The notes below the pieces were generated by a model. It was not told the DNA's origin. It worked only from the letters and a program-made list of their open reading frames with translations, and did not search any database. This document shows, one piece after another, positions 13,986 through 59,476 of a stretch of 64,000 nt of DNA (its first letter is position 1; the number at the start of each line of letters is the position of its first letter). The DNA is taken from positions 1,054,001 through 1,118,000 of the forward strand of contig CM059621.1 of assembly GCA_030435675.1 (NCBI GenBank), in the 5' to 3' direction. Both the position numbers and the translations under genes were made by a program. This DNA comes from Steinernema hermaphroditum. Its lineage: Eukaryota > Nematoda > Chromadorea > Rhabditida > Steinernematidae.

Positions 13986-16900
13986 TCACTCCACCGGTTG
14001 CACATAGCTAGCAGGGAATAAGCCCTTTTGTCCATCCTTCCTACCGTAGCACCAGCCGAGCTGGTCGGGCTCCGAAAGCACTTCGATGATTTCGCCTTAA
14101 AATCGAGATTATTTGCGTACTAACTACTACCAAACCTTTCTCTAGCTTTATTTCGTCATCTTCGACTGGCGTGTAATCGTAGAGCACTTTGGCGTGGCCT
14201 CTGCTCGTGAATTCGCCATATTTGAGCGAGTCGGTGGAATCGGTATTCGCCACGCTTGGCGGTCCACTGTGATGTTCATAATTTGCGGCATCGCCTGTCG
14301 CCGTTGGATCTGAACGTTCCGGGGTTGGCATGGGAAACGGATCCGCCATAGGGTTCGTCGGGGTGTGGCGTTGATTCCGCGTTTTCGACACCGGTGTGTC
14401 CGTCACGTAATCACCGATCGCTGAGAACCTCTTCAAAGCGGACGTTTCTGAGGCGGAAGCGATATTCTGGCTATCTCTGAGGATGTCATCACAGCTTGAA
14501 GAGCCCTTTAAGGGCGTGAGGCCTCCATCTTCCGATCGAATTCTCTGTCGCATAAGAACGACTCCGCCAGTGTCCTTCTGTGAATTTTTCCGAGAGCCTA
14601 TATTTCGTATTTCCGGTGTGTATTCTTCGAATTCCGGCCATTTGGTGGGCGCGTCGACACCGAAAGTGCGGGACCACTCGCTGAGGTCTGCGGAAAGGAG
14701 ATTTTCGCTTGTTTCCGAAAACAGGCGCTGGAGATTTTGATGAACATTTGACAACCTAAAAAATATGAATGTTATGTAAACGATCATGTGCAATGAAAAT
14801 GACAGTTCTTCGTTTGATTCATTTTTTGTTTTTTGCATGTTTCGATGGTTTCAAGAGGAATTTTTTTTACTTTTTATAATCATTGTCTTTGAAAACCGCT
14901 TATATAATAAGAAACGTTTTGGGAAAAAAAATTCGCAGTCAGCAGGATTCGAACCTACGCGGGCAGAGCCCAATTGATTTCTAGTCAATCTCCTTAACCA
15001 CTCGGACATGACTGCACGTCGGAGTGCAGCGGTCACTGTTGTATTATTCACATTGCGATTCAAAAAAGCTCAAATAGAAACTTCGTGATGTCAGTTTTAG
15101 AAGAAGGAGCTTTTTGTAAGTCGGATGTCATTTACGGCATTGTCTTGATTATCTTTTGACGCTAGGGAAGCGACCAGCACAATATCAGAATCATTACCGG
15201 ACACAAGGTCCGGGGTTCGAACCCCCCTGGCGGAGATTCTTTCCTGTTACTAAGTTCAATATTTGCGCTTATGTTTATCAAGGATTTAACAGTTTTTTTT
15301 TGAAAAAACAAATACTTTTGGAACGTTCTCATGAATACTGGATTTGTTTTAATGGTGTACCTAGTGCACTTCCATGGATAATATTGTCTTATACTTATGC
15401 TATTCACTATACTCATTGAGCTTATAATAACTGACGATAGGAAAACATAATCGATTGCCAGCTCCTTTGGAATGCTGCGCGCATTCATTCCTCTCATCGA
15501 TATGATGTTATCGTTGCGCACCAAAGGTCAGGGACTCGCAATCCGTCTAACCCTTCTTATGGACCTTCTTATCGATTAGATTAGAGCAGTCCAGGGTTGC
15601 CTTAGTATCCTACGTTCGTGCGCCATCTGTTTGTTCAACTAATCATCGAAAGAAAAGCCGCCAAACGTTGTTGGTTGTTCACTCATTTCGCACAGTATAA
15701 GAAGATTGCGTCGAGCGCCGCAAATTACTCTGGTACGTACAGGTGTGAGCAAACAAAAGAACATTCATCTCAATGTTTCGAAACACGTCAGCAACACCAC
15801 GCAAAAAGGTTATCAACACAAAAGACGTGCGTTTTTCTGGTGATGAGTCATCCCTATAAGGTGGCGGGTATAGTATGTGCCAGCACCCTCCACTTCAGGC
15901 TCCAGCTGCCTATATCAAGTGTTTGGAAAACATCCTTTACAGTTTGACCGTCTTTACGATTTGATCAGTCAAAAAAACTGCGAAAAAAACATGAACAGTC
16001 TTCTTCACACACTCTGCTATAGCCATCGAAAAATCACCATTCCCTATGATGCTAAAGGCGATCATTAGCCTAATTATCCAATTATCAATTAGCCAGATCA
16101 CTTCGAGATACTAGCTGGGATGTGTTTGAGCATCCGATGTTCGAATTTCGACTTCCCATCACCGACGCGCATACGTTTGCCGTCTCAAAAATAGGCGCCA
16201 AACCGGTTAATTCAAATTTGAATGCCGCATTCCTTCGCAAAGGCGACGATTAGTGAGTGATGACGAAGCGCCATTTAACGAGCTGCATTATTTTCAAACG
16301 CACACGAGATAGGGAGACCATCCGATGTCAACAAAGTTCTTCTATGACTCTACGCCAATCGATAAATGCAGGCCAAAAAACTTGCCTTGACGAGCTGATG
16401 AGATCTATGAGGACCTTCTGCATCCCGCTAATCATCTCGACGACGAACTTCATCCTTTTCATCTCCGTCTGCTGACACTTTTCGAAGACGAATGTCATAT
16501 TTTCGATGTATACACTATTATAGTTTGTAATTTCGCGAAGCTGCGTCTCATAAACGCCTTTCAGTCGACTTGCCTAGAATCAATCGGGTTTGATCGGGTT
16601 AACCAAAATGATTGTAGCAAACCTCATCCTTGCACTTTTCATGTCGTTCCCTGAGCTTATCCGCCGCATCTACCGACACCGATGTGTCCGCCTGCGAATT
16701 CATCAGTTGAACATATGTGGATTTTTCGTTCTTGCACGAACTATGGTAAGCTTTTCGAGCGCACTCGACCTTATCGTATAGTTTTTTCCATTGCCGTTGA
16801 GCCTATAAAATCGTTTTGATGTCGGGAAGGAAAATAGTCTTTACCTTTTCAAAAGCGTCTTCTATATCGCGCATTTCTTTGGGTGCCCGAAAAGCTGATG

Positions 16901-57144: not shown

Positions 57145-58964
57145 GCAGCTCAAACAGGAAATGTTCGGTCACTTAGCGTGAACGTAACCTTTTTAGGTGT
57201 TTGTTGGGCACAAACTTGCAGTTTTTATTGTGATATATGATAAGTGCGGCGATGACGCCGCGCGAAAAGTGTAACAAACGAGGCGGCTGTCTAATGATAA
57301 CAAGGAACCGAAGCGTTGCAAGGTGGAACATTAAAAAGATGATAGAAACAAGTTTCGGATTTTATAGATTTTTTGCACTGTTCATGTTTCCTATCCTAAA
57401 TCCTATCCTAAATTCTTTTCAGCATTTTCCACATCCAAATTGGACCAATTGCTACAGTAAGACTCACTCATCATCAGCAAGTCACCATCTTTTTTTTACA
57501 TTTATTTAGTGTTTATCGCGGCCTCTTAGTAATCACAATGGACCTACACGGGCCCCATGCATCTGAAAGTCGACTGTTTACATTGTTGGCACCGTATCCT
57601 CTTTGCCATTGTGAACATATGCGATAATGGTCCTGATTAGGGACGAGCCGACAGCGGCACCTGTTCTTCATTAAAGGGCGAAAAGTCACCATTGACGAGT
57701 GCCCTCAAGAAACTTTTACGAACGAAGTCCCGACAACTTTGATATCATACGGTAGATAGAGTCACTGAAATGAACTTCAAGTCTCTCTTCCCTAATCCAA
57801 AACGACATTTATGTTGACGATTGCCTGGGAATAGCATAAAAGTTTCCATCAGCGATGAGAACTTCCACACAACAGAGACGCACTACATTTATATTGCGAT
57901 GCACTTTGGTGCACTTTCGGCAGCGTCGGCGGGGTCGGCACCGTCGACGGCGTTTTGCGCCAAACACAGCCAATCGATGTCGGACGATCGGAGCTCTATC
58001 TTTAATTCTACGTAAGTTATTATATTTTTGATTTTAACACAAAGCACCAAAGAGCCAGAGGATGTCCTGAATAGATCGTTAGAAGAGAGGAAGGAAGAAG
58101 AAAAAAGAACGAAAGGATGACCTCAATCCCCATCGTTAGGGCATTATTAACAAACGATGATCTTGAAGCTTGCTTTTTAGGTAATTCCTTTAATGACCCT
58201 GGTCCGGCCCCCCCTACCAACATTCAAGAGAGACATCGCGGACTTCGACCCCTTCTTTGCAGAAACAACAGTTGTTAACAATATCAGTCCGACTTAGGCC
58301 TGGTTGTTTCGTCAAAAATGACGTTGCTCCTTATCAGCAAAGCGCATGCTTGTCGTCTACGATCGGCTGTTTCGAAGCCTATTCCACCGATGCCTGCTGA
58401 GGTGAGCAATACTTTAGTTACTGCGAGACGAGACATGATGATTTTACTTGACCTCGCTAAAAACTAACATTCAGATGCCTGGCAGAACATCGAGCATGAT
58501 CACTGATATTGATTGTTTTCGATGCATGCCAATGCCTTCAGCTTGCAATGAACATTTATGACCTATTATTATCACTGTATCCGATCTCGACTTGGACTTC
58601 AAGAGGGGATCATAGTACGTTGATGACCAGCATTGTGTGACAGCTTGTAATGCACATTTAGACCTATTATCATCACTGTATCCGATCTCGACTTGGACTT
58701 CAAGAGGTCGCAATTCAGATGCTCACTCCATGGTGCGTAAATCGATTAAGAAAAGGAAGCGAGACTACTCAAGTGAGAGCGTTTCGTAAGGCGCCGACGG
58801 CATCTGTGTAAGTTTTTCATTAAAGTAATCATCGTTAAACAGTGACTTTATGTCATTGTCAGAACGAGCATGAGCCCTTTCGATTTAGCTTAGAGACTAC
58901 ATTACAATAAACAAGCTCATTCTTAACAAACGTTGATTTTGTACTGATGTTGCTTTTTTTTCAG
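57145..58964. other. Mostly gene-free, possible exon and direct repeat
   Basis: A possible first exon (57899-58012, MHFGALSAASAGSAPS) ends AATTCTAC/GTAAGT. It could splice to the acceptor TTTTTTTTCAG at 58964 in an open frame reaching 59487, but that frame runs into the reverse-transcribed sequence, so I do not call it a gene. 58541-58612 and 58646-58708 are direct repeats sharing GTATCCGATCTCGACTTGG and ACTTCAAGAGG. Confidence 0.4.
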
Positions 58965-59219
58965 ACGGTCACACAAGCGGCCCGTCGCGCGACGAAGAAG
59001 TCACAACATCAACGAGCCGCCGCCTCAGCCCCCATCTTCGTCGCCACCAGACACCTTCGCTCCTTCGCCAGTCGAACAGTTCGAAGGACGGTCAGCTGCC
59101 GCGCAATCACGCCGTCTCCACCACTACCGTCCTCGTCTCCTCGCGTCGTTTGCCGCTCTGCTTAGTGATCCGTGCCCCCTTATGCCCCGTGCCTTTGTCT
59201 TATATTTCGTGTATATAAA

Positions 59220-59240
59220 GTTTAATTACCCAAGTTTGAG
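59220..59240 (+). other. SL1 spliced-leader sequence in genomic DNA
   Basis: These 21 bases equal nucleotides 2-22 of the conserved nematode SL1 leader (AATTACCCAAGTTTGAG core). In an SL1 RNA gene the leader is followed by a GT splice donor. Here GAG is followed by ATTTCTC, as in a spliced mRNA. It is therefore a copied, already trans-spliced RNA 5' end rather than an SL gene. Confidence 0.85.
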
Positions 59241-59402
59241 ATTTCTCTACAACGCTCTCTCTCGCGTTTTCCTTCATCGTCGTCGACCCTCAGTTCGTCG
59301 TCGATCACCTCAGCAGAAGACCCGCGTGGCAGGACCCCAGGACGAGAAGGCCCATTCTTCCGTTCACTCTCCAATCCAAGACACCACTGAACAGCCAGTT
59401 CA

Positions 59403-59476
59403 TGGTGCATCGGCCGGGAAGCGAACCCGGGCCGCCCGCGTGGCAGGCGAGCATTCTACCACTGAACCACCGATGT
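59403..59476 (-). tRNA. tRNA-Gly(GCC) retro-copy with encoded CCA
   Basis: 71 nt plus CCA on the minus strand, with anticodon loop CTGCCAC (anticodon GCC) and D-arm GGTTCAGTGGTAGAAT. T-arm CCGGGTTCGCTTCCCGG has C at position 58, where tRNAs have an invariant A (usually m1A). Position 1 is A instead of G and cannot pair with C72. A genomically encoded CCA is not used by nematode tRNA genes. Together these mark a copy of mature tRNA, probably not functional. Confidence 0.8.

What the first reader, a model, noticed from the sequence alone, without database searches (positions are those of the whole stretch)
59220..59476. A tRNA-primed, SL1-terminated cDNA frozen in the genome
Read on the minus strand, a full tRNA-Gly(GCC) with encoded CCA runs directly into about 162 nt of other sequence and ends at the complement of nucleotides 22 to 2 of the SL1 leader. 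Chance cannot explain a 21-base SL1 match beside a CCA-tailed tRNA. The simplest reading is reverse transcription primed from the tRNA 3' end on a trans-spliced RNA, copied to its capped end, with the tRNA itself then copied and integrated. The TTCA/TGG joint looks like an LTR/primer-binding boundary, so the RNA could come from a retroelement whose transcripts receive SL1. That combination would be new to me.
Basis: partly seen in the sequence, partly recalled or inferred. Interest (0 to 1): 0.88.

Follow-up and report, generated by a model that had tools for sequence, protein, structure and literature searches.

The report
SL1-bearing LTR fused to primer tRNA
In a roundworm genome, the broken end of a likely Bel/Pao retrotransposon carries the worm's own SL1 leader sequence and runs straight into a copy of the tRNA that likely primed its copying, and many other retrotransposon ends in the same genome carry the identical leader at the same spot, where it would act as the repeat they need to replicate.

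Summary
Window 58973-59402 is a 5'-truncated LTR, 95% identical to ~509-bp solo LTRs elsewhere in this nematode genome. SL1 (nt 2-22, 59220-59240) lies inside it, so the copy does not end at SL1. The LTR end meets a primer-binding site that runs on into the complement of a whole tRNA-Gly(GCC) with CCA (59403-59476). The tRNA copy has C at position 58; of 68 genomic copies of that segment, 66 have A58. This fits plus-strand cDNA reading through a methylated A58 into the primer tRNA. The wider finding: SL1 sits directly after an xATAAA-type motif in 12 clusters of sites (six verified as LTRs here), with Gypsy-type and Pao-type proteins among them, and in both LTRs of nine element pairs. LTR-type SL1 sites (164) are about as many as SL1 RNA gene-type sites (167). 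SL1 is therefore likely these elements' R repeat, acquired or renewed by trans-splicing. SL1 beside Pao elements is published for Brugia; the R placement in two superfamilies and the tRNA read-through were not found in my searches. RNA data are needed.

The parts
58973..59402 (+). 5'-truncated LTR (matches reference LTR positions 81-509 of 509)
   Evidence: blastn 94.9% identity to solo LTR L003; relatives elsewhere in the genome
59214..59219 (+). TATAAA directly before SL1 (polyadenylation-signal-like or TATA-box-like)
   Evidence: sequence; a NATAAA hexamer is at this place in 92 of 99 sites read
59220..59240 (+). SL1 leader nt 2-22, exact, inside the LTR; likely R region
   Evidence: same place in 12 clusters of sites
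59241..59402 (+). U5-like part of the LTR (SL1 end to LTR end ...GCCAGTTCA)
   Evidence: LTR 3' end defined by relatives with 5-bp target-site duplications
59321..59333 (+). CCCGCGTGGCAGG, perfect 13-nt complement of the tRNA-Gly(GCC) anticodon arm (tRNA nt 30-42); likely second primer contact
   Evidence: its 10-nt core is found in 46 of 56 sites of eight clusters and 0 of 43 of four others
59403..59420 (+). primer-binding site, 18 nt complementary to the 3' end of tRNA-Gly(GCC) up to the base before A58
59403..59476 (-). tRNA-Gly(GCC) copy with CCA; nt 1 A, position 58 C
   Evidence: A58 in 66 of 68 genomic copies of the 20-nt segment

Best explanation
This is a broken LTR of a likely Bel/Pao retrotransposon, carrying SL1 inside it and joined at its end to a 73-nt copy of tRNA-Gly(GCC); it was likely made when plus-strand cDNA synthesis ran through the primer-binding site and on through the whole primer tRNA, misreading a predicted methyl-A58, before the fragment entered the chromosome. 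Shown: the LTR, its truncation at 58973, SL1 inside it, the exact LTR/PBS joint, the CCA, and C58 where the ordinary genes have A58. Inferred: the plus-strand read-through, the A58 methylation, and capture of the product without a normal integration (no internal region follows; I saw no target-site duplication). SL1 in this and many other LTRs likely forms the R region: the element RNA would begin with SL1, supplied or renewed by trans-splicing, and would end just after the xATAAA signal within or near the LTR copy of SL1, so that SL1 is the repeat used for first-strand transfer. The 13-nt complement of the tRNA anticodon arm in U5 would be a second contact with the primer.
For: LTR: 7 of 17 window-family rows have TG...CA ends and an exact 5-bp duplication. 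Superfamily: a related LTR+PBS copy (L110) is followed by DUF1759, E 1.3e-08. Primer: of 52 TGGTGCATCGGCC sites the match to the tRNA first breaks after 13 nt in 31, 14 in 4, 15 in 2, 18 in 10, 19 in 3, and 23 and 67 once each; two of the ten breaking at 18 (the window L109 and L096) mismatch at position 58 and then resume. Eighteen nt is where m1A58 stops HIV-1 plus-strand synthesis, and copying to the tRNA 5' end is the product of an unmodified tRNA (PMC13191261, passages). Seven copies read past position 58 (L058, L064, L096, L109; L039, L073, L074): position 58 is substituted in 3 of 7 against 5 of 337 other positions, Fisher p 2.8e-4. The LTR next to the tRNA copy has relatives for L109, L058, L074, L039 and, over 24 nt, L064. 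m1A causes RT arrest and misincorporation (PMC4787781, passages). SL1: 99 non-gene sites in 12 clusters, 76 exact and 86 exact over nt 2-22, with 12 of 26 mismatches at nt 1, the putative cap-side junction. TG...CA ends with exact 5-bp duplications in 28 sites of clusters 0, 1, 2 and 4; in 9 of 10 candidate pairs (clusters 0, 1, 9, 10) both LTRs align (96.8-99.7%) and both carry SL1. Elements include Gypsy-like (RVT_1, RT_RNaseH) and Pao (Peptidase_A17, 2.2e-40) proteins. Among 15 window-family copies SL1 nt 2-22 diverges 0.038 against 0.097 for the whole LTR. Possible trans-splicing scars: a tandem SL1-SL1 (L159, the only one) and TTTGAG duplications at the SL1 end in two clusters (L013, L167). 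Second contact: anticodon-arm complement in 46 of 56 sites of clusters 1-3, 5-8 and 10, and 0 of 43 sites of clusters 0, 4, 9 and 11.
Against: No RNA evidence: transcript ends, trans-splicing and A58 methylation are untested here. TATAAA (55 of 99 sites) is also a TATA box; it would put transcription start near the end of SL1 and SL1 in the promoter. 48 of the 52 tRNA-Gly PBS sites have no SL1-like sequence (<=4 substitutions) within the 350 nt before them, so SL1 is not needed by most tRNA-Gly-primed ends. SL1 sites were collected by SL1 match, so exactness within that set is partly ascertained. LTR ends were not verified for clusters 3, 5-8 and 11, and a tRNA-Gly PBS was seen directly only in clusters 1, 2 and 10. 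L049 of the window family has lost SL1. The tandem SL1 and TTTGAG duplications could be slippage; two further TTTGAG matches were not read. The 18-nt stops may be normal PBSs of intact elements.
Confidence: 0.7

Rival explanations
1. SL1 is self-encoded: LTR transcription starts at SL1 itself, so the element RNA mimics a trans-spliced mRNA without any trans-splicing, and SL1 is kept by selection for that mimicry.
For: SL1 sits at one fixed place in both LTRs of nine pairs; the G-run at its start varies (1, 2 or 3 G) as RNA starts may; 76 of 99 sites are exact, over 12 clusters.
Against: A TATAAA only about 7 nt upstream cannot be a normal TATA box for a start at SL1; the tandem SL1 and TTTGAG duplications look like re-addition.
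Confidence: 0.25
2. SL1 in the LTR is a DNA-level core promoter element lying between a TATA box and the start site, borrowed from the internal promoter that SL RNA genes are recalled to have in Ascaris.
For: TATAAA spacing would place a start just after SL1; TATAAA is the hexamer in 55 of 99 sites.
Against: Other sites have CATAAA (21), AATAAA (12) or GATAAA (4) and L032 has AATACA, which fit polyadenylation signals better; the three SL RNA gene-like upstream flanks read do not resemble the LTR U3 ends by eye.
Confidence: 0.17
3. The tRNA is an ordinary tRNA-Gly gene next to which an LTR happened to insert, with CCA arising by chance.
For: ARAGORN and Rfam call a tRNA; many tRNA-Gly copies exist in the genome.
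Against: The joint is exactly LTR end/CCA/tRNA as in a PBS; a related LTR copy has the tRNA-Gly PBS at the same point (L110); C58 alters a base recalled as conserved in the pol III B box and is otherwise seen only in L073, which also ends in a PBS-like joint; L039 and L058 repeat the arrangement with other LTR families; the tRNA genes L040 and L055 lack CCA.
Confidence: 0.03
4. The SL1 is an SL1 RNA gene or a fragment of one.
For: Same 22-nt sequence; 167 SL1+GTAAACATT sites exist.
Against: The sequence after SL1 is ATTTCTC, not GTAAACATT; the 99 LTR-type sites were those without that SL RNA body at <=2 mismatches.
Confidence: 0.01

Closest known systems
SL1-flanked PAO retrotransposons of Brugia malayi (PMC7181701, passages read)
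   Same: SL1 on the same strand near both ends of some Pao-type elements; 120 SL1 sites outside SL RNA genes, 60 within 1 kb of PAO; authors infer leaders were added to PAO transcripts and integrated with them.
   Different: Here SL1 is placed inside the LTR next to a polyadenylation-like signal, in Gypsy-type as well as Pao-type elements, with LTR pairs and primer sites resolved. I saw none of this in the passages read.
Flatworm SL loci discarded as mobile-element-associated (PMC12582326, passages read)
   Same: 597 loci tied mainly to LTR and LINE elements; same trans-splice-then-integrate idea.
   Different: Described there as partial leader sequences; no LTR anatomy in the passages read. 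Here mostly exact leaders at one fixed place.
HIV-1 plus-strand strong-stop products P1 and P2 (PMC13191261, passages read)
   Same: Stop before m1A58 gives an 18-nt PBS copy; copying to the tRNA 5' end gives the full tRNA.
   Different: Known from HIV-1 reverse transcription; here products of that shape are read from chromosomal copies, with a substitution at position 58 in 3 of 7.
[quoted passage not shown] PMC13191261 passages)
   Same: A second site upstream of the PBS complementary to the primer anticodon loop.
   Different: Here a 10- to 13-nt complement of the tRNA-Gly anticodon arm inside the LTR; interaction untested.
Helenus TRIMs (PMC10886601, abstract and outline)
   Same: LTR element associated with a tRNA-like sequence.
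   Different: In Helenus the tRNA-like sequence lies inside the LTR and is proposed as a promoter; here it is outside, antisense to the element, at the PBS.

Membership tests
LTR retrotransposon (solo/truncated LTR) | TG...CA LTR with short target-site duplication in relatives | tested here: met
   7 of 17 window-family rows; the window copy itself is truncated and shows none
LTR retrotransposon (solo/truncated LTR) | Primer-binding site complementary to a tRNA 3' end directly after the LTR | tested here: met
   TGGTGCATCGGCCGGGAA at 59403-59420
Bel/Pao superfamily (window LTR family) | Pao-type proteins in an element with this LTR | tested here: inconclusive
   DUF1759, recalled as a Bel/Pao gag domain, about 0.2 kb after the PBS of relative L110 (L202); no RT or Peptidase_A17 was found for this family
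Bel/Pao superfamily (other SL1-LTR elements) | Pao retrotransposon peptidase | tested here: met
   PF05380, E 2.2e-40, in the element with LTRs L030/L031
Ty3/Gypsy superfamily (other SL1-LTR elements) | Gypsy-type RT and RNase H | tested here: met
   PF00078, PF17917, PF17919 in elements with LTRs L011/L012 and L178/L177; assignment to Gypsy from these domains is recalled knowledge
SL1 RNA gene | SL1 followed by the 5' splice site and SL RNA body GTAAACATT | tested here: not met
   window has ATTTCTC; 167 gene-type sites elsewhere
Functional tRNA-Gly gene | intact B box with A58, no encoded CCA | tested here: not met
   C58 and encoded CCA; a tRNA is still predicted
SL1-headed element RNA (R = SL1) | RNA 5' end at SL1 nt 1 and 3' end after xATAAA in SL1 | not testable with these tools
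   no transcript data held
Helenus | tRNA-derived sequence inside the LTR | tested here: not met
   tRNA lies outside the LTR at the PBS

The most novel reading that the evidence does not exclude
LTR retrotransposons of two superfamilies in this worm have handed their R repeat to the host: each new genomic RNA receives SL1 by trans-splicing, the 3' LTR ends its RNA in an encoded SL1, and first-strand transfer pairs the two, so the host spliced leader re-templates the element's R region at every cycle.
Probability: 0.33. Interest if true: 0.92.

Novelty: new variant of a known kind. Interest (0 to 1): 0.74.

Why it matters
If SL1 is the R region, host trans-splicing is part of the retrotransposon replication cycle, which would tie two fields together and give one clear prediction (SL1 at both RNA ends). 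It also means that roughly half of the SL1 sequences in this genome are of LTR type rather than SL RNA gene type, which matters for SL annotation. The PBS series may be a chromosomal record of where reverse transcriptase stopped or misread at tRNA position 58.

Tried and rejected
SL1-terminated cDNA: rejected, because the LTR extends 247 bp upstream of SL1. SL1 RNA gene: rejected by the following sequence. Independent tRNA gene plus LTR: rejected by the joint, C58 and repeats of the arrangement. Helenus: tRNA is outside the LTR.

Left unproven: I first took the 18- and 19-nt PBS copies for aborted integrations. Upstream regions for 11 of them plus 4 read-through copies were fetched and showed no clear duplication next to the PBS end; at least some look like short TG...CA LTRs with a normal PBS, so I do not claim they are abortive. 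Older SL1 relics downstream of SL1: 28 representative sites tested; the L018 and L132 types scored well (single-test P 0.0006 and 0.0026, uncorrected), L034, L159 and L167 weakly (0.005-0.017), the other 23 did not (P above 0.1), so this is suggestive only. Within-family SL1 conservation: the first run (17 copies) showed none because L049 has lost SL1 and L047 starts inside it; both were dropped for (15 copies). The internal piece for the C3 2.41-Mb pair (L184) showed no RT-like ORF by eye, so it is not counted. L124/L123 are not a pair. L073 and L096 have no LTR relative among the fetched loci. The RNA fold of the tRNA copy was uninformative. Species not identified; my guess at Steinernema was not confirmed. 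The tool reports no relatives of this genome, so presence in other nematodes was not tested by sequence. An earlier hand count of 4 of 337 mismatches was wrong; one search gives 5 of 337.

Full report
What is there. On the + strand the window reads: LTR fragment 58973-59402, then TGG... and the complement of tRNA-Gly(GCC) to 59476, then sequence with no other copy found over its first 314 nt. The LTR fragment matches positions 81-509 of a 509-bp LTR (94.9%). Of 17 related rows, 7 are solo LTRs with TG...CA ends and exact 5-bp target-site duplications. SL1 nt 2-22 is internal to the LTR at 59220-59240, directly after TATAAA.

The tRNA part. The LTR/tRNA joint is a primer-binding site. A relative (L110) has the same LTR end and TGGTGCATCGGCC, then element sequence with a DUF1759 protein. 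In the window the match continues through the whole tRNA to nt 2. Of 52 genomic TGGTGCATCGGCC sites, the match to the tRNA first breaks after 13 nt in 31, 14 in 4, 15 in 2, 18 in 10, 19 in 3, and 23 and 67 once each; of the ten breaking at 18, L096 and the window (L109) differ only at position 58 and then resume for 5 and 54 nt. Fifteen at 18 or more compares with 0.05 expected from random extension. The base after 18 nt is opposite A58, the m1A58 stop of HIV-1 plus-strand synthesis (PMC13191261, passages). Seven copies go past it, three of these (L039, L073, L074) found with a different pattern. Position 58 is substituted in 3 of 7 (L109, L073, L096) against 5 of 337 other positions (Fisher p 2.8e-4). 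Five of the seven have relatives of the LTR end next to the tRNA copy (L109, L058, L074, L039, and L064 over 24 nt); L073 and L096 have none among the fetched loci, though L073 carries a near match to the anticodon-arm complement described below. Across the genome the 20-nt segment has A58 66 times and another base twice: the window and L073. That pattern is what reading through a methylated A would leave; methylation itself was not tested.

SL1 in LTRs. SL1 with <=1 mismatch occurs 333 times. TAAAGG+SL1 (<=2 mismatches) occurs 164 times with 0 control hits, and SL1+GTAAACATT (<=2 mismatches), the SL RNA gene type, 167 times. I read 102 distinct sites: 3 gene-like and 99 others (L159's tandem counted twice), which fall into 12 similarity clusters; the remaining places were not fetched, and sites with identical flanks were counted once. 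LTR ends were verified by TG...CA plus exact 5-bp duplication in 28 sites of clusters 0, 1, 2 and 4, and by pairs in clusters 0, 1, 9 and 10; clusters 3, 5-8 and 11 are LTR-like but unverified. Of the 99, 76 are exact and 86 exact over nt 2-22; nt 1 carries 12 of 26 mismatches. Because sites were collected by SL1 match, exactness alone is biased. Less biased is the window family, found by a 301-nt query that includes but is not limited to SL1: SL1 nt 2-22 diverges 0.038 against 0.097 for the LTR, 0.124 for the 100 columns of U3 before it and 0.07-0.098 for U5 (15 of 17 copies; L047 and L049 dropped). In nine of ten tested pairs both LTRs carry SL1, with 96.8-99.7% LTR identity, G-rich purine tracts before the 3' LTR and TGG-type primer-site sequence after the 5' LTR. 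Internal pieces show Gypsy-like RT/RNase H (L182, L185) and Pao peptidase (L183). SL1 is not universal: 48 of 52 tRNA-Gly PBS sites have no SL1-like sequence within 350 nt.

Mechanism. A hexamer of the form NATAAA lies directly before SL1 in 92 of 99 sites: TATAAA 55, CATAAA 21, AATAAA 12, GATAAA 4. This fits a polyadenylation signal at the U3/R border with a short R, an arrangement I recall from Rous sarcoma virus. On that reading R is SL1, and the RNA 5' end is SL1 by trans-splicing or by a start at SL1. One tandem SL1 (L159; only such place) and two TTTGAG duplications at the SL1 end (L013, L167) look like SL1 added again onto an RNA that already had one, but slippage is possible. The TATA-box reading remains open.

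Second primer contact. CCCGCGTGGC, the complement of the tRNA-Gly anticodon arm (<=1 mismatch, 150 nt after SL1), is in 46 of 56 sites of clusters 1-3, 5-8 and 10, and in 0 of 43 of clusters 0, 4, 9 and 11; shuffled rates were 0-0.025 per cluster. A tRNA-Gly PBS is seen directly in clusters 1, 2 and 10, all with the motif; TGGCGATC primer-site sequence is seen in clusters 0, 1 and 9; cluster 1 mixes both types. In the window the motif is 59321-59333. HIV-1 has a known contact of this kind (PMC7793103 abstract).

Literature. Passages of PMC7181701 report SL1 flanking PAO elements in Brugia malayi and infer trans-splicing then integration. PMC12582326 (passages) reports 597 SL loci tied to mobile elements in flatworms. 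Cer1 of C. [quoted passage not shown] In the held library, searches showed me no paper that places SL1 at the R region of LTRs or describes LTR-joined full tRNA copies; subscription papers are mostly not held, and I saw only listings, passages, outlines and abstracts.

Noticed in passing
window 14933-15016: tRNA-Ser(AGA) gene on the minus strand, the only other tRNA found in the window.
   Followed up: no
window 57558-58888 and L009 2089-3022: Several stretches (up to 91% over 476 nt) recur in inverted orientation about 20 kb away at C1:1.133-1.136 Mb.
   Followed up: no
L005, L006, L007 (contig C9): The solo LTR recurs with identical flanks at about 34.65-kb spacing on an 87-kb contig, suggesting a long tandem array or assembly repeat.
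   Followed up: no
L187/L188 and L189/L190: Copies of one short LTR family share an 18- or 19-nt tRNA-Gly PBS but have unrelated sequence right after it, possibly small non-autonomous elements with different cargo.
   Followed up: partly
C4:13375647-13386667: Tandem array of SL1 RNA gene-type sites at about 365-470 bp spacing; the listing was cut there, so the array may go on.
   Followed up: no
L202 1482-2000 (-): ORF with a LEM-3-like GIY-YIG domain downstream of a window-family LTR/PBS copy.
   Followed up: no
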